DNA of 64,000 bases from Falsochrobactrum shanghaiense (lineage in GTDB: Bacteria; Pseudomonadota; Alphaproteobacteria; Rhizobiales; Rhizobiaceae). Below, in pieces: positions 42,415-62,316 of the stretch. Under the pieces are notes generated by a model, which did no database searches, was not told the DNA's origin, and saw only the letters and a list, made by a program, of their open reading frames with translations. Numbering within the stretch: position 1 is the stretch's first letter; each line of letters starts with the position of its first letter. A program made the position numbers and the translations under genes. The stretch spans positions 186,001 through 250,000 of the forward strand of contig NZ_QGDB01000001.1 in the NCBI RefSeq assembly GCF_003149535.1, given 5' to 3'.

Positions 42415-43971
42415 TCACTTAGGGAGCTTTTCCTGCACCCAATCGCGGGCGGCGCGCATATCTTCATCGCCGATCAGGTGTCCCGCAGGCAGACGGCGTG
42501 CATCCAGATCGGCCCCGCCCTGCCGAAGAGAGCTTTCCAGCGGCGCCGACAATCCACCAAAAAGATCGTTCGCACCGCTGAGCAGCAGCACCGATGCATC
42601 GGATAAATCGGCCTCGGGCGGATTTTCCAGCACCTCTATGCCGCGCAGCAAAATCGCCTTGCGCACGATATGCGGGTGCAGCCGCAGGAAGGCTGCAAGC
42701 AGGTTCGCCCCGTTGGAATAGCCCAGAAAGACCATGCGTTCAGGATCGAGGCCGTAGGCGACTATTGCGCCTTCGATGAAAGCCTCGAGGGCATCGGCTT
42801 CAAAGGCAATATCCGCCTGATCGAAATCATTCATGGAAAAGCGGCGGAACCAGCGCTGTATGCCCTCTTCGGTGCTGCGGCCACGCAAGCCCAGAAGCGT
42901 TGCGCGCGGCGCAACCATGCCTGCCAAGGGCATAAGATCGCTTTCATTGCCGCCGCTTCCATGCAGCAGCACCAGCGTCGAGCCATCGGGATTTTCAGGC
43001 TGGTACATGCGATGCACGAAAGGCAGATCGCGATAGATCACACGCTCTTCGCCGGGCAGTGCGAATTGCGGCAAGCGGAGGCGAATGGCGGCTTCCTCAT
43101 CTTCATTGCCGGGCGGCACGAAGAGTGTCCGCCCCAGCGCCTCGACCGGTTCGTCAATGGTGAAGCCGGGAGCATCCGTCGCCAGTTCAAACAGGATGCC
43201 GCCCGGTTCGCGAACATAGAGCGATGTGAAATATTTGCGATCATGCAGATTTGTTTCGCTGGAATTGAGCGCGGAAAATGCCTTTTCCGCCGCCATGACC
43301 GCTTCATTGTCGCTGGCGCGAAAGGCGACGTGATCGAATGTGCCCGTGCCGGGTATGCCGGGCCAGAAGCCGGTTGCGTCACGCACGTCGACGGCATCGC
43401 CCGCCTGCGAGAGCAGGCGGTTGATCGCCCCTTCCCGCGCTTTGGGCGTGAAGCCGAAATAGCGCCCGATGAAATCCGCCGTCTGTTCGGGCGTCTCGGA
43501 AAGTAGGGTGGCAGCGCGCAGCCGCCGCACCGCATGTTCGGCTGGAATATCGGCAGGCTGCCAGAGGTCGTTTGCATCAAGATCGCAACCCACCAGCTTG
43601 ACGATCACGCCGTCGGGATCGCGCAGGCGCAGCACCGGCTCGCCAAATTCCTGCACCGGGCCTTCGGAAGCGATCTGGTGGCGCAAGGCGCGCTCCAGCC
43701 AGAAGCCGATGGATGTGCGATCCACGGCAAAGGCAATCTCGCTTACCTGCCCGTGACCGACCCGCCCCTTCGCGCCGTCTTCCCATACCAGAAATGTAAC
43801 CAGCGAACCGGGCGTGCCGGTGCGGTCGCCATAAAAAATGTGAAGCTGCTGCGCATCCTCGAAGCCGCCCGTCTGCTTGACGATGCGCAGACCAAGAAAG
43901 CCCGCGTAGAAATCGACGTTGGCCTGTACCTTATGGGTGATGAGGGTGAGGTGGTGAATCCCGCTGGTCAT
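42415..43971 (-). CDS. Fusion of ring-cleaving-dioxygenase-like VOC protein and alpha/beta hydrolase (MhqO-MhqD type)
   Basis: This is a 518-residue two-part protein. Residues 1 to about 300 hold two VOC (glyoxalase/dioxygenase) modules (MTSGIHHLTLITHKVQANVDF shortened to GIHHLTLITHKVQ; second module GTFDHVAFRASDNEA) with metal-ligand-type His and Glu positions (LFELATDAPGF). Residues about 325-518 are a carboxylesterase-like hydrolase with LLHGSGGNESDLMPLA, nucleophile GYSNGANLLAAF near residue 419 and the histidine loop PAGHLIGDED. In Bacillus, MhqO and MhqD are separate proteins of quinone detoxification; that role here is by analogy. Confidence 0.85.
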   Translation of the reverse strand: MTSGIHHLTLITHKVQANVDFYAGFLGLRIVKQTGGFEDAQQLHIFYGDRTGTPGSLVTFLVWEDGAKGRVGHGQVSEIAFAVDRTSIGFWLERALRHQIASEGPVQEFGEPVLRLRDPDGVIVKLVGCDLDANDLWQPADIPAEHAVRRLRAATLLSETPEQTADFIGRYFGFTPKAREGAINRLLSQAGDAVDVRDATGFWPGIPGTGTFDHVAFRASDNEAVMAAEKAFSALNSSETNLHDRKYFTSLYVREPGGILFELATDAPGFTIDEPVEALGRTLFVPPGNEDEEAAIRLRLPQFALPGEERVIYRDLPFVHRMYQPENPDGSTLVLLHGSGGNESDLMPLAGMVAPRATLLGLRGRSTEEGIQRWFRRFSMNDFDQADIAFEADALEAFIEGAIVAYGLDPERMVFLGYSNGANLLAAFLRLHPHIVRKAILLRGIEVLENPPEADLSDASVLLLSGANDLFGGLSAPLESSLRQGGADLDARRLPAGHLIGDEDMRAARDWVQEKLPK

Positions 43972-44066: not shown

Positions 44067-44177
44067 AAAAAGAAAAAGGCCGCGCGGGAGGAGGATGCGC
44101 GGCCTGATCTTGAATACGGCTTAGGAGGAGGAGTGCCGTATCCGTATTGAGTTCTGGGAGGAGGAGTGAACTCAATG
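44067..44177 (-). ncRNA. Small RNA with three CCTCCTCC hairpin loops (CuckooRNA/alpha-r14-like)
   Basis: Read on the minus strand, three hairpins follow one another, each showing CCTCCTCC in its loop. They are a 9-bp stem at 44146-44176 (ATTGAGTTC/GAACTCAAT), a 7-bp stem at 44114-44141 (ATACGGC/GCCGTAT), and an 8-bp GC stem at 44078-44104 (GGCCGCGC/GCGCGGCC). TTTTTCTTTTT follows, so the last hairpin is an intrinsic terminator. Size (about 110 nt), three loops and motif fit the alphaproteobacterial anti-Shine-Dalgarno sRNAs known as CuckooRNAs, alpha-r14 or CcsR. It sits between the VOC-hydrolase fusion and a 61-residue gene. The remaining bases from 43972 to 44356 show nothing else. Confidence 0.85.
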
Positions 44178-44183
44178 ACTGCT

Positions 44184-44211
44184 ATGTAGCCACGGCCTGC
44201 CCTGCAAACAA
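44184..44211 (-). promoter_or_regulatory. Possible promoter of the small RNA
   Basis: On the minus strand CTTGTTTG (with TTGTTT at 44206-44211) is separated by 16 bases from CTACAT (44184-44189). This roughly resembles heat-shock-sigma (RpoH-type) promoters that drive related sRNAs in other alphaproteobacteria. It would start the transcript at about 44177, right at the first hairpin. The match is loose. Confidence 0.35.
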
Positions 44212-44356
44212 GGGTCAATAATGCATATCAGTTATGCAAATTAGCCGCCGCTGGGGAAAATGGCGTATATTTGCGCGAGGACGCAAGGTTGAAATCCCCC
44301 GCGCCTCCCTTATCTCCATCCCTATACTGCCTGAAACGCTGTCAGAGGAGGACATC

Positions 44357-44542
44357 ATGGACGGACAGGTCATATTCTACAAAGGCGACCGGATCATCTA
44401 CCGGCATCATATCGATGTGCAGGACGACGATTATTCCAAGGGCGTGAATGATGCGCTCATCGCCTTCCAGCGCAATTATGCCGGTTTCGATCTGGCAGGC
44501 GACGATATTCATATTCGCTTCAAGCATCCGGGCGACATCTGA
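44357..44542 (+). CDS. 61-residue hypothetical protein
   Basis: The short protein MDGQVIFYKGDRIIYRHHID... has a beta-rich N-terminus (VIFYKGDRIIYRHHIDVQDD) followed by a helical part (YSKGVNDALIAFQRNYAGFD) and no signal or membrane segment. I do not recognise a family. It is believable as a gene because AGAGGAGGA (44344-44352) is an excellent ribosome site five bases before the ATG, and a strong terminator follows. That ribosome site is complementary to the loops of the neighbouring small RNA. An upstream in-frame ATG at 44234 lacks a ribosome site. Confidence 0.7.
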   Translation: MDGQVIFYKGDRIIYRHHIDVQDDDYSKGVNDALIAFQRNYAGFDLAGDDIHIRFKHPGDI

Positions 44543-44680: not shown

Positions 44681-45295
44681 ATGAAAAAGACCTTCATCAT
44701 CGTTGGAAACGGCCCGCTGGAGCGTGATCTTTCCGAAGAAATCGATGCCGCCGATCTCGTGCTGCGCTTCAATGAGCCACGCGTCTCCATCGGCATGAGC
44801 GGCAGCAAGACGGATATGCTCATGCTTGCCACATCCAGCAAGCAGATGCAGCAATGGATCAGCGACCCGGCTTTTGTGAATTCCCGGATCGTGCGCAATA
44901 CGCCGGAAATCCTGTTTGCATTCCATCCCAGCATCATCCGGCGCTTCCATCATCACCCCAATTTGCTCTCACGCCTCAAGGGACGGCGTGCCGACTGGAC
45001 CATGCAGGCCATCGATTATTTCGGGCAGGCGGGCAAGAAAATCCGCATCATGCCCTCACAGTTCTATTTTGACGTCTGCAAGGAACTGGGCATCGAGCGC
45101 GAACGCATGAAGGAGGTCTTTCCCAGCACCGGCTTCTTCGGCATCTGGCTGGTTCTGGGCAAATATTCCCTGCCCGACTGGCAGGTGAAAATATGCGGCT
45201 TCAGTTGGGAAGGCTGGAAGCGCCATGACTGGGCCGCAGAGCGCCAGTGGATCGAAGCGAGGATGGAAGAAGGCAGATTGCAGGTTCTAAAATAA
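44681..45295 (+). CDS. Glycosyltransferase family 29-like (sialyltransferase-fold) protein
   Basis: This is a 204-residue cytoplasmic protein. FIIVGNGPLERDLSEEIDAA with DLVLRFNEP right after it resembles the L-motif of GT29 sialyltransferases (VVGN...IDxxDxVxRFN). MKEVFPSTGFFGIWLVL resembles the S-motif (PSTGxxA). The histidine in WKRHDWAAERQW may be the catalytic base. Proteins like this in Rhizobiales are often labelled urease operon accessory proteins, and I see no urease context here. The two genes downstream (GT25, deacetylase) suggest envelope or LPS sugar modification. Confidence 0.7.
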   Translation: MKKTFIIVGNGPLERDLSEEIDAADLVLRFNEPRVSIGMSGSKTDMLMLATSSKQMQQWISDPAFVNSRIVRNTPEILFAFHPSIIRRFHHHPNLLSRLKGRRADWTMQAIDYFGQAGKKIRIMPSQFYFDVCKELGIERERMKEVFPSTGFFGIWLVLGKYSLPDWQVKICGFSWEGWKRHDWAAERQWIEARMEEGRLQVLK

Positions 45296-45386
45296 CGCCC
45301 AAATAAGTTCGGGTTGCAGAAAGCCGGTACATAGCAGATATAGGGAACCATTACGGCATATCTTCAATCCTTTGCGCCCGGTTCCC

Positions 45387-46115
45387 ATGAACGTCAAAGC
45401 CTTCATCATTCATCTGGCCCGGGCGAGCGAACGCGCGTCGCAGGTGGAAAAGCTCATCCGCAAACTGCCGCTAAAGGCTGAGGTCATCGACGCAGTCGAC
45501 AGCCGCACCCTTTCCGATTCAGCCATCGCACAGGTCTATAAGCGGCACCTGCATGCGCCGCATTATCCGTTCAGGCTCAGCCGCAACGAGATCGCCTGCT
45601 TTTTATCGCATCGCAAGGCATGGCAGGCCATTATCGACCAGAAGCTCGATGCGGGCTTCGTCATCGAAGATGATATTGAGCTGACCGAGGTGTTTGAAAG
45701 CGCCTTGCGGGCCGCGCTCGATCATCTGGAACCCGGCGGCTTCATCCGCTTTGCCTTTCGCGAGGACCGGGAACAGGGTCGCGAAGTCTTTCGCAGCGGC
45801 AAGGTGCGGATCATCATCCCCGATCCGATCGGGCTGGGCATGGTGGCGCAACTTGTCAGCCATGATGCGGCGAAAAAACTTCTGGAGGTCACCCGCCAGT
45901 TCGACCGTCCCGTCGACACCACCATTCAGATGCGCTGGATGACGGGGCTGCAACCGCTCAGCGTGCTGCCGGGCGGCGTGCGCGAAATTTCCGCGCGGCT
46001 GGGCGGCACGACGGTTCAGCTCAGAAAATCTTTCATCGATAAATTACATCGCGAAATCATGCGCCCGATCTATCGCATGCGCATTCGCCGCTTTTCCAGC
46101 AGGACGAAAAGGTGA
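45387..46115 (+). CDS. Glycosyltransferase family 25 (LPS/LOS core type)
   Basis: The 242-residue GT25-type transferase has the start MNVKAFIIHLARASERASQVE, EVIDAVDSRTL, RLSRNEIACFLSHRKAWQAI near residue 65 and FVIEDDIELTEVF near 92, which holds the metal-binding ED. Family members add galactose or other sugars to lipooligosaccharide. The ATG at 45387 is chosen over a TTG at 45372. The next gene starts within or just after its stop codon, so they form an operon. Confidence 0.88.
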   Translation: MNVKAFIIHLARASERASQVEKLIRKLPLKAEVIDAVDSRTLSDSAIAQVYKRHLHAPHYPFRLSRNEIACFLSHRKAWQAIIDQKLDAGFVIEDDIELTEVFESALRAALDHLEPGGFIRFAFREDREQGREVFRSGKVRIIIPDPIGLGMVAQLVSHDAAKKLLEVTRQFDRPVDTTIQMRWMTGLQPLSVLPGGVREISARLGGTTVQLRKSFIDKLHREIMRPIYRMRIRRFSSRTKR

Positions 46116-46120
46116 AGCCC

Positions 46121-46822
46121 ATGGCCGTCCCTGTTCTTTTATACCACCAGATCGCGCCGCTGCCGCACAAGAAGATTCCCTTTCGCGGATTATGGGTGCA
46201 TCCCGACAAGTTCCGCGCCCAGATGAGATGGCTCAAGCGGCTCGGCTATCAGGGCCTCTCGCTGCGCGATGCCATGCCTTATATTCGCGGCGAAAAGAAC
46301 GGCAAGGTGGCCGTCATTACATTCGATGACGGCTTTCTCAATGTTTATGAGAACGCCCTTCCCGTTCTTGCCGATCATGGCTTTACGGCGACCAATTATT
46401 TTGTCGCAAACCAGATTGGCGGCAGCAATATCTGGGACAAGGGCGTGGGCGTACCGGTCTCGCCCTGCATGACGGTGGCGCAAATGCGCGAATGGGCGGC
46501 GCTGGGCCATGAGGTCGGCGCGCATACGCTCGATCACGTCAATCTGGAAAAGACGCCGGACGAAGAAGCACAGCGGCAGATCGCGCTGTCGAAAACCATG
46601 CTGGAAGATATGCTTGGTGCGCCGGTCGATAATTTCGCCTATCCTTATGGCGGCAATCTGGCCGTGCATCGCGCCATGTGCCGCGAGGCCGGTTTTGAAA
46701 CCGCGACGACCACCGTGCGCGCACGGGCGCGGGCCAGCGACGACCCGTTCGGCATGCCGCGCATTTATGTGCGCCGCCGCGATCTCGCACCCAAATTCAT
46801 CCTGCGGCTGATGACGCGCTGA
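46121..46822 (+). CDS. Polysaccharide deacetylase (NodB domain)
   Basis: The 233-residue protein has a full NodB signature: VPVLLYHQIAP at the start, TFDDGFLNVYENALPVL near residue 62 (catalytic and metal Asp), GHEVGAHTLDHVNLEKT near 130 (metal histidines), and FAYPYGGN. It should remove N-acetyl groups from envelope sugars. No signal peptide is seen, so a cytoplasmic or precursor-level role is possible. The ATG at 46121 has AAGGTGA before it. A GTG at 46112 that overlaps the previous stop is an alternative. Confidence 0.85.
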   Translation: MAVPVLLYHQIAPLPHKKIPFRGLWVHPDKFRAQMRWLKRLGYQGLSLRDAMPYIRGEKNGKVAVITFDDGFLNVYENALPVLADHGFTATNYFVANQIGGSNIWDKGVGVPVSPCMTVAQMREWAALGHEVGAHTLDHVNLEKTPDEEAQRQIALSKTMLEDMLGAPVDNFAYPYGGNLAVHRAMCREAGFETATTTVRARARASDDPFGMPRIYVRRRDLAPKFILRLMTR

Positions 46823-46943: not shown

Positions 46944-48221
46944 ATGGACTATCGCCGTTTTTTCGAAGAAGCGATCGATCAGCTACACGCCGAGAAGCGT
47001 TATCGCGTTTTTGCCAATCTCGAGCGCATCGTCGGGCGTTTTCCCCGCGCGATCTGGCGTGAGAATGGCGCGGCCCGTGAAATCACCGTCTGGTGCTCGA
47101 ACGACTATCTGGGCATGGGACACCATTGCGATGTCATCAATGCCATGTGCGAGACGGCGCAGGCCAATGGTTCGGGCGCTGGCGGCACGCGCAATATTTC
47201 GGGCAACAACCATCCTCTGGTGGAGTTGGAAGCCGAACTGGCCGATCTGCATGGCAAGGAAGCCGGGCTGGTCTTCACATCGGGCTTCGTCTCCAATGAA
47301 GCCTCGATCTCGACCATCGGACGGCTACTGCCCGATTGCCTCATCCTTTCCGACGAACTCAACCATGCCTCGATGATCGAGGGCGTGCGCCGTTCCGGCG
47401 CGGAGAAGAAGATTTTCCGTCACAATGACGTCGAGCATCTGGAGCAATTGCTCAAATCCGCAGACCATTCGCGCGCCAAGCTGATCGTTTTCGAATCCGT
47501 CTATTCGATGGATGGCGACATTGCGCCAATCGAACAGATTGCCGATCTTGCCGAGAAGTACAACGCCATGACCTATATTGACGAGGTCCATGCGGTCGGC
47601 ATGTACGGCCCGCGCGGCGGCGGCATTACCGAACGCGACGGCCTTGCGCATCGCATCGATATTATCGAGGGCACGCTGGCCAAGGCATTCGGTGCGCTGG
47701 GCGGCTATATTACCGGATCGCGCGCCATCATCGATGCCGTGCGTTCCTATGCGCCGGGCTTCATCTTCACGACTTCACTGCCGCCTGCGGTCGCAGCTTC
47801 GGCGACGGCTGCAATCCGTCATCTGAAAGTCTCGCAGGCCGAGCGTGACGGGCAGCAGCGCCAGTCGCAGCGCGCGAAAGATGTGCTTGCGGCAGCCGGT
47901 CTTCCCGTCATGGCGTCGCAAACGCATATCGTGCCTATTCTGGTCGGCGATCCGGAACTGTGCAAGAAGGCCAGCGACCGCCTTTTGAACGTGCATGGGA
48001 TCTATATCCAGCCGATCAACTACCCGACCGTGCCGCGCGGCACCGAGCGCCTGCGCATCACGCCGTCGCCGCTGCATGATGATGCGCTGATCGACGGGCT
48101 GAAGGACGCATTGCTTGAAGTGTGGAACGAGCTGGGCATTCCCTTCGCCGAGCCGGAAGCTCCGAAGGCCGCCAATTCCGACCGCATCATTGCGCTGATG
48201 GTTTCCAAGGCAGGCGGTTAA
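46944..48221 (+). CDS. hemA: 5-aminolevulinate synthase
   Basis: The 425-residue PLP enzyme condenses glycine and succinyl-CoA to 5-aminolevulinate, the alphaproteobacterial (Shemin) entry to heme. Signatures are [53 protein letters not shown] and the PLP lysine in [13 protein letters not shown] (about Lys247). The ribosome site AAGGAG precedes the ATG. Demand for heme in the cbb3 oxidase fits an oxygen-responsive control, hinted at by the FNR-like box. The gene ends at a terminator shared with the convergent aminotransferase. Confidence 0.98.
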
Positions 48222-62029: not shown

Positions 62030-62212
62030 CGAGCCTGCACCCCGTCATCTGCCGTATCACGGTCTTTCCAAGAACTGATCGGTATTAGCACCTATCGCGC
62101 CATTTGCGCGCCTCTTTGTTGGGTTTTCCGCAAGAAAGCGCGCCCTTCTTGCAGCTTTGTCGCAATTTCAAACATTGACGCCCCGGCGCAAGAGGCATAA
62201 AGAAAAAACATT

Positions 62213-62268
62213 CCGTGGTGATTTGGCCGGCCGGCTTGCAGCCACGTTAAAGAATTCGCTAAAAAGGG
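62213..62268 (+). ncRNA. SAM-II riboswitch aptamer upstream of metZ
   Basis: The conserved SAM-II pattern is present. P1 pairs CGTGG (62214-62218) with CCACG (62242-62246). TGATTT follows P1, CTTGCAG precedes its right arm, and CGCTAAAAAGGG (62257-62268) forms the pseudoknot strand. SAM-II binds S-adenosylmethionine and lowers expression of methionine synthesis genes in Alphaproteobacteria. It lies 108 bases before the metZ start. The stretch 62030-62212 before it holds the dcd and metZ promoters and no other feature. Confidence 0.92.
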
Positions 62269-62280
62269 CCGCGGTTTGTT

Positions 62281-62316
62281 ACCGGCCTTTTGCGTTTTCG
62301 CAAGGCCGGTTTTTTA
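62281..62316 (+). terminator. Intrinsic terminator between SAM-II aptamer and metZ
   Basis: ACCGGCC pairs with GGCCGGT (62281-62287 with 62304-62310) and TTGC with GCAA (62290-62293 with 62300-62303), with a 2-nt bulge and a 6-nt loop. T's follow from 62310. An alternative pairing of AAGGGCCG (62264-62271) with CGGCCTT (62283-62289) would act as antiterminator and uses aptamer bases. Confidence 0.8.

What the first reader, a model, noticed from the sequence alone, without database searches (positions are those of the whole stretch)
44067..44177. Three-loop CCTCCTCC small RNA on the minus strand
Three consecutive, unrelated stems each present the same CCTCCTCC loop, and the last one ends in a T-rich terminator. 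Different stems with an identical loop show selection on the loop, which is a perfect anti-Shine-Dalgarno sequence. The layout matches the CuckooRNA/alpha-r14/CcsR group known from Sinorhizobium and Rhodobacter, where such RNAs respond to stress. Function at this locus is open: it could titrate or block ribosome binding sites, or act as a sponge.
Basis: partly seen in the sequence, partly recalled or inferred. Interest (0 to 1): 0.78.

Follow-up and report, generated by a model that had tools for sequence, protein, structure and literature searches.

The report
Known three-hairpin anti-ribosome-site small RNA
The sequence is a member of a known bacterial small-RNA family (alpha-r14, like NfeR1) whose three identical loops can cover the ribosome-binding sites of messenger RNAs, and it carries a switch site shared with its sister small RNAs.

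Summary
On the minus strand, 44180-44072, three unrelated stems each carry CCTCCTCC in the loop, and the third ends in T5CT5. The stretch matches Rfam ar14 (RF02344) over the full model, 78.0 bits against a cut-off of 58.8; fold z-score -8.1. Its genome has four copies over cut-off; two follow DUF1127 genes, this one does not.

The locus is fixed in its genus (Brucella/Ochrobactrum/Falsochrobactrum): 30 of 30 genomes judged, its own included. Upstream lies a perfect match to the published LsrB/VtlR box, GCAT-N3-TG-N3-T, before a sigma-70-like promoter. A stricter form of the box occurs 4 times in the 3.84-Mb genome, each time at an anti-SD sRNA locus. In 35 genus genomes, 63 of 66 boxes lie beside ar14 or AbcR.

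Most likely: a trans-acting anti-SD sRNA switched on by LsrB/VtlR. Family, loops and LsrB control are published for S. meliloti. New here is the genus-wide box census. Transcription and targets remain untested.

The parts
44072..44180 (-). alpha-r14 (NfeR1-like) small RNA gene
   Evidence: Rfam RF02344, 78.0 bits, model 1-123; fold z -8.08; transcript ends are inferred, not measured
44146..44176 (-). hairpin I, loop copy CCTCCTCC at 44157-44164
   Evidence: two pairs change on both sides among 18 distinct orthologues (44174/44148, TA in the window only, CG in 17; 44172/44150, AT in 10, GC in 8)
44112..44143 (-). hairpin II, loop copy CCTCCTCC at 44124-44131
44069..44105 (-). hairpin III with loop copy CCTCCTCC at 44087-44094, followed by a T-rich run: intrinsic terminator
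   Evidence: no substitution in 30 orthologues
44184..44189 (-). putative -10, CTACAT
   Evidence: match to CTTG..-N17-CTANAT; this hexamer is only 69% identical in the orthologues; inference from sequence
44207..44212 (-). putative -35, CTTGTT, 17 bases from the -10
   Evidence: inference from sequence
44219..44238 (-). LsrB/VtlR-type operator TGCATAACTGATATGCATTA (contains GCAT-N3-TG-N3-T at 44237-44225)
   Evidence: 94% mean pairwise identity in 30 orthologues against 39-69% for the other non-RNA segments compared
42415..43971 (-). downstream neighbour: glyoxalase-fold + carboxylesterase-like fusion; marks the conserved locus, not part of the RNA
   Evidence: the esterase match is below NCBIfam's cut-off
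44357..44542 (+). divergent 61-aa ORF with SD AGAGGAGGA; possible local target, not conserved

Best explanation
It is a stand-alone alpha-r14 small RNA of the NfeR1 type, about 110 nt. It is transcribed from a sigma-70-like promoter that needs, or is boosted by, a LsrB/VtlR-family LysR regulator bound at 44238-44219, and ends at hairpin III. The three hairpins hold three equal anti-Shine-Dalgarno seeds (CCUCCUCC) open. Each seed can pair with a GGAGGAGG-like ribosome-binding site and block translation start of several mRNAs, which are then likely to decay. Shown here: sequence, predicted structure, family membership, conservation, operator match and its genome-wide company. Inferred from S. 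meliloti NfeR1: transcription, activator, redundancy of seeds, silencing of translation. Unknown: targets in this organism.
For: Rfam ar14 at 78.0 bits; three hairpins, z -8.08. Three loops before the same gene in 30 of 30 genus genomes in which that gene's start was matched. Loops almost free of change while stem I shows paired changes. In the 8 Rhizobium-group genomes reached, the best copy scores 100-119 bits. Box: perfect LsrB/VtlR consensus; the stricter pattern occurs 4 times in the genome, all at ar14/AbcR loci; 63 of 66 in the genus, at a set distance within each class (54-59 nt for stand-alone ar14). A LysR gene sits beside the AbcR copy, next to a pyridine-nucleotide-disulphide oxidoreductase, much as described for Brucella vtlR with its thioredoxin-disulfide reductase neighbour (PMC12595884, passages). 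In S. meliloti LsrB binds PnfeR1 and NfeR1 silences ntrB through its seeds (PMC10746234, abstract, introduction, passages). In A. tumefaciens VtlR activates small RNAs (AbcR1, VrsA; PMC7486931, passages and first part of the discussion).
Against: No transcript data were available. The ntrB start region of this genome pairs only weakly with the loops (-10.5 to -12.0 kcal/mol), so the one well-studied NfeR1 circuit is probably not conserved. The distinct upstream NtrC site of S. meliloti is missing; the only TGC-N11-GCA match within 240 bases upstream lies inside the LsrB-type box. The core promoter hexamers are poorly conserved (69% for the -10). S. meliloti NfeR1 is one of six copies of which one was reliably detected by Northern (PMC7143759, passage), so a copy can be silent. 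Three of 66 boxes have no anti-SD RNA nearby, and 9 of 12 named genomes outside the genus have no strict box at all.
Confidence: 0.8

Rival explanations
1. A cis-acting leader or attenuator of the glyoxalase/esterase gene downstream: the three hairpins and terminator would control that gene's transcription.
For: The order sRNA-gene is kept in 30 of 30 genus genomes judged and the RNA points at the gene.
Against: The terminator is invariant but the sequence just behind it is not (39% mean identity), and the distance from last loop to start codon runs from 115 to 307 nt. The same RNA type sits in other settings in the same genome, and three genus genomes (G003, G025, G027) keep the ar14 and box although no match to the gene was found at E 1e-60.
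Confidence: 0.06
2. A sponge or titrator: the loops mimic the 16S rRNA tail and soak up mRNAs, or bind another RNA or a protein, instead of silencing set targets.
For: Three equal copies of a motif would suit a sponge; hairpins II-III are frozen beyond what loop display needs, which could mean a bound partner.
Against: In S. meliloti NfeR1 the seeds silence defined mRNAs in double-plasmid tests (PMC10746234, introduction and passages).
Confidence: 0.1
3. A CcsR/CIN1-type RNA cut by RNase E from a DUF1127 mRNA under RpoH control.
For: Two of the four copies of this genome do follow DUF1127 genes.
Against: No DUF1127 match on the window's contig, and a promoter plus operator directly upstream; one RpoH1-type pattern without match.
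Confidence: 0.03
4. A short coding gene (the minus frame reads proline triplets over two of the loops).
For: An open frame of 95 codons runs through it.
Against: The spacing of loops differs between orthologues by 1 or 2 bases, in six combinations (a seventh row of that count, L057, comes from an overlapping motif), which breaks the frame.
Confidence: 0.01

Closest known systems
Rfam RF02344 ar14 / NfeR1 (SmelC397, Smr14C2) of Sinorhizobium meliloti
   Same: Three hairpins with CCUCCUCC(C) loops, terminator, LsrB-type box ahead of a sigma-70-like promoter (PMC10746234, PMC7143759, passages); length 109 here, 123 or 115 nt given for NfeR1 (PMC10746234, PMC8844928)
   Different: No separate NtrC site; weak pairing with ntrB; box starts 54-59 nt before the model start in this genus, LsrB site given as -72 to -57 from the start site in S. 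meliloti
RFMSmelA075/A099 group (stress-induced SmelA075)
   Same: CCUCCUCCC in three or four loops, variable stems, several copies per genome (PMC3927594 section 2.7; PMC2873474 passages)
   Different: Heat induction is reported for SmelA075; not tested here
CcsR1-4 of Rhodobacter sphaeroides (Cuckoo/CIN1 locus)
   Same: Hairpins with anti-SD loops (two-loop RS0680a in PMC3927594 section 2.7; that RS0680 equals CcsR is recalled)
   Different: CcsR follows the DUF1127 gene ccaF1 with an RpoHI/RpoHII promoter (PMC10253847, passages); this copy stands alone
AbcR1/2 (Rfam ar15)
   Same: Anti-SD loop, and one of the two copies here has the same LsrB/VtlR box in front
   Different: One CCTCC-type loop and another fold; the window RNA has no ar15 match over cut-off

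Membership tests
alpha-r14 (RF02344, NfeR1) | Covariance-model score above the curated cut-off over the whole model | tested here: met
   78.0 bits against 58.8, model 1-123
alpha-r14 (RF02344, NfeR1) | Three hairpins, each with CCUCCUCC(C) unpaired; stems variable | tested here: met
   loop II reads CCUCCUCCU in the window, CCUCCUCCC in the other 29 orthologues
alpha-r14 (RF02344, NfeR1) | Intrinsic terminator at the third hairpin | tested here: met
alpha-r14 (RF02344, NfeR1) | Sigma-70-like promoter with the conserved LsrB-type motif upstream | tested here: met
   the hexamers themselves vary in the genus
alpha-r14 (RF02344, NfeR1) | Separate NtrC site upstream (S. meliloti and symbionts) | tested here: not met
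   only a match inside the LsrB box; PMC10746234 says it is not evident in A. tumefaciens or Brucella, so it does not define the family
alpha-r14 (RF02344, NfeR1) | Expressed, Hfq-independent, silences by its seeds | not testable with these tools
   needs RNA and reporter work
CcsR / CIN1 | Co-transcribed behind a DUF1127 gene | tested here: not met
   the 5 DUF1127 matches (4 over cut-off) lie on contigs C12 and C22, the window on C1
CcsR / CIN1 | RpoH-type promoter | tested here: inconclusive
   no match to one RpoH1 pattern; RpoHII not tested
AbcR (ar15) | Covariance-model match | tested here: not met
   no ar15 match over cut-off in the window
LsrB/VtlR regulon | Box GCAT-N3-TG-N3-T upstream of the promoter | tested here: met
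LsrB/VtlR regulon | Binding and loss of transcript in a regulator mutant | not testable with these tools
   wet work

The most novel reading that the evidence does not exclude
In the Brucella/Ochrobactrum/Falsochrobactrum lineage the LsrB/VtlR regulon is in essence one translation-silencing module: AbcR, the DUF1127-linked ar14 and this stand-alone ar14, all with anti-SD loops and all behind the same box. This stand-alone RNA would then be a direct VtlR target that gene-based transcript counts missed because it is not annotated, and it could explain part of the vtlR mutant phenotype that re-supplying AbcR2 and the three DUF1127 genes did not restore (PMC12595884, passages).
Probability: 0.5. 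Interest if true: 0.55.

Novelty: new member of a known kind. Interest (0 to 1): 0.36.

Why it matters
It fixes the identity of a regulatory RNA and shows that, in a whole genus, 63 of 66 strict LsrB/VtlR-type boxes stand by an anti-SD small RNA. If binding is confirmed, a LysR regulator acts there mainly through RNAs that mask ribosome sites, and the small list of its targets (10 genes in B. abortus by PMC7486931; chiefly AbcR2 and three DUF1127 genes by PMC12595884) gains a member that can be checked in existing reads.

Tried and rejected
Neighbouring 61-aa gene as a dedicated target: its SD pairs with the loops at -15.0 to -16.2 kcal/mol, which would rank about 12th among 193 ORF start regions of the window (best -22.4, median -8.0, loop I only; many of these ORFs are not genes), and the gene was found in 1 of 29 orthologous loci. 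ntrB as target: weak pairing. Weak ar14 match of 26.8 bits in the genome is AbcR (76 bits for ar15). A match of 37.8 bits (L005) has one clear CCTCCTCCTCCC hairpin and no promoter that I could see; left out of the copy count. Two matches at 13 bits (E 8.45) treated as noise or as an extra hairpin. The box pattern was built by eye from the window, L003, the AbcR copy and Rhizobium copies, so those loci match by construction; its absence elsewhere, the DUF1127-side sites and the genus census do not follow from that. The reversed pattern gave 1 match in the 35 genomes against 66. In 12 named genomes outside the genus the strict pattern found 3 sites in 3 genomes, none in 9; by coordinates all 3 lie within 100 bases of an ar14 match, two on its strand at 57, one on the other strand. 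Many Rhizobium copies carry looser forms (read by eye). Locus L119 was cut wrongly (gene at its edge), so the count outside the genus is 0 of 49, not 50; in loci whose match starts at residue 2 or 3 the offset is a few bases. The DUF1127 gene was located only in the window's genome; for the other 15 loci of that geometry it is inferred.

Full report
What is there. On the minus strand, 44180 to 44072, three hairpins follow one another. Each holds CCTCCTCC in its loop (44157-44164, 44124-44131, 44087-44094), and the third is followed by TTTTTCTTTTT. The window has 5 copies of the 8-mer (mean 1.44 in shuffles); three of them stand within 78 bases on one strand, and the first two as a spaced CTCCTCCTCC pair were not met in 100 shuffles. 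The RNA fold has z -8.08 with 0 of 200 shuffles as good. Rfam's ar14 model (RF02344) matches end to end at 78.0 bits, cut-off 58.8.

Copies. The genome (3.84 Mb in 47 contigs) holds four ar14 copies over cut-off. Of the weaker matches, one at 26.8 bits is AbcR, which scores 76 with its own model ar15; one at 37.8 bits is a partial form; two at 13 bits are noise or an extra hairpin. Two of the four copies lie 78 and 116 bases behind the end of a DUF1127 domain match, the CIN1 or CcsR arrangement; the window copy and one more stand alone. Among 60 genomes (own included) 46 have a match at E 0.01 and 37 one over cut-off, among them all 34 others of the genus and the one other genome of the family; of 24 more distant genomes of the order, 10 match and 1 is over cut-off. 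In 12 named genomes reached through loci, 12 match and 9 are over cut-off.

The locus. The gene downstream, a glyoxalase-fold and carboxylesterase-like fusion, was found in 31 of 35 genus genomes. Outside the genus 0 of 49 loci of that gene have it (one of 50 could not be judged). The nearest named relative by this protein is Falsochrobactrum (84%); the organism itself is not named.

Conservation. The 30 rows give 18 distinct RNAs. In hairpin I two pairs change on both sides (TA to CG, where TA is the window alone; AT to GC, 10 and 8) and others on one side. Two pairs at the foot of the stem are broken in some rows: the outermost pair in 6 of the 18 distinct RNAs, the pair 44176/44146 in 1. 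Pairs of hairpin III never vary and those of hairpin II vary at one place on one side, so they say nothing for or against pairing. Loops hardly vary; one substitution in the window's own loop II and length differences beside the seeds are the exceptions. From hairpin II's 3' half through the linker, hairpin III and the U-run there is no substitution, with one extra G between hairpin II and the linker in 5 of 30 rows, while the non-RNA segments compared, box apart, are 39-69% identical. Hairpins II and III are therefore under more constraint than display of a loop would need; a bound protein or processing site is a possible reason (inference).

Promoter. Upstream are CTTGTT-N17-CTACAT (44212-44184) and a perfect match to the LsrB/VtlR box GCAT-N3-TG-N3-T (44237-44225), the consensus given in PMC7486931 (discussion, first of two parts read) and PMC8844928 (passages). 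The Brucella VtlR motif CAATGCAGCCATGCA (PMC12595884, passage) is the other-strand reading of the AbcR version of this box. The box is the best kept of the non-RNA segments compared (94%); the -10 hexamer is not well kept (69%). A strict pattern, TGCATNNCTGNNNTGCNNTA, occurs once in the window (0 in 100 shuffles) and 4 times in the genome with 0 for the reversed pattern: before this RNA, before the other stand-alone ar14, ahead of the DUF1127-ar14 pair on contig 12, and before one of two AbcR copies, beside a LysR gene. The DUF1127-ar14 pair on contig 22 has no strict box. In 35 genus genomes there are 66 such boxes in 34 genomes, reversed pattern 1. I held or fetched all 66 and scanned them: 52 lie by ar14 and 11 by ar15. 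By geometry: 36 before stand-alone ar14, same strand, 54-59 bases to the model start, 33 of them of the window's type; 16 on the other strand 317-336 bases before ar14 (the DUF1127 type, the gene located in the window's genome only); 11 before AbcR at 63-64. Three have no anti-SD motif in the stretch held (L175, L201, L223). The pattern was partly built from some of these loci, so its presence there is not independent; its rarity elsewhere is. Outside the genus the strict pattern is rare: 3 sites, all by ar14, in 3 of 12 genomes.

How it works. For S. meliloti NfeR1, the founding member, the mBio paper (PMC10746234; abstract, introduction, passages) reports an Hfq-independent 123-nt RNA, three redundant CCUCCUCCC seeds, LsrB as activator, NtrC as repressor, and silencing of ntrB. 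I infer the same core for this RNA: LsrB/VtlR-driven, seed-based blocking of ribosome sites. Two parts of that circuit do not carry over: there is no separate NtrC site (the only TGC-N11-GCA match in the 240 bases looked at is inside the LsrB box; 19 of the 33 window-type boxes listed keep that reading), and ntrB's start region pairs weakly. Targets remain open. The company of AbcR and ar14 behind one box suggests overlapping target sets, as the S. meliloti paper predicts there (PMC10746234, passage). A limit: in A. tumefaciens the VtlR regulon is put at more than 200 genes, though direct binding was shown for few (PMC7486931, discussion part read), so 'one module' would hold for this genus at most.

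What is known and what is new. The loops, the family, its presence in Brucellaceae, and a promoter alignment that included Brucella are in print (PMC3927594 section 2.7; PMC7143759 and PMC10746234 passages). In a search for papers holding two of VtlR, NfeR1, CuckooRNA and CcsR1, one was found, PMC8844928; the 12 of 22 passages seen do not link VtlR to an ar14 RNA in this genus, and the Brucella sRNA review PMC9751625 has no hit for r14, anti-Shine or DUF1127. The library is open-access only, and the founding papers on Cuckoo RNA, CcaF1 and CcsR were not held, so this is weak evidence of absence. New here is the census of boxes and the placing of this RNA in that regulon. Verdict: an ordinary, well-supported member of a known family, with one testable addition.

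Noticed in passing
window 62205-62284 (+): SAM_alpha riboswitch (RF00521), 81.1 bits.
   Followed up: no
L162, L169, L177, L186, L200, L206, L208, L210, L213-L215, L220, L221, L225, L228, L231: In the 16 loci with the box 317-336 bases before ar14, a glycine riboswitch lies on the far side of the box in the opposite direction, 16 of 16; the box could serve both sides.
   Followed up: partly
window 44069-44120 (-): Hairpin II 3' half to U-run has no substitution in 30 orthologues although non-RNA segments nearby are at 39-69% identity: more constraint than loops alone would explain.
   Followed up: partly
L175, L201, L223: Three strict LsrB/VtlR-type boxes without any anti-SD motif nearby: chance or other targets.
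   Followed up: no
G000:C22:411845-411967 and just upstream: The ar14 copy behind a DUF1127 gene has an extra anti-SD hairpin ahead of it, and its middle hairpin lacks the CCTCCTCC loop.
   Followed up: no
window 44681-46822: Genes with glycosyltransferase family 29 and 25 matches and what reads as a polysaccharide deacetylase (by eye), ahead of a 5-aminolevulinate synthase gene at 46944-48221.
   Followed up: no
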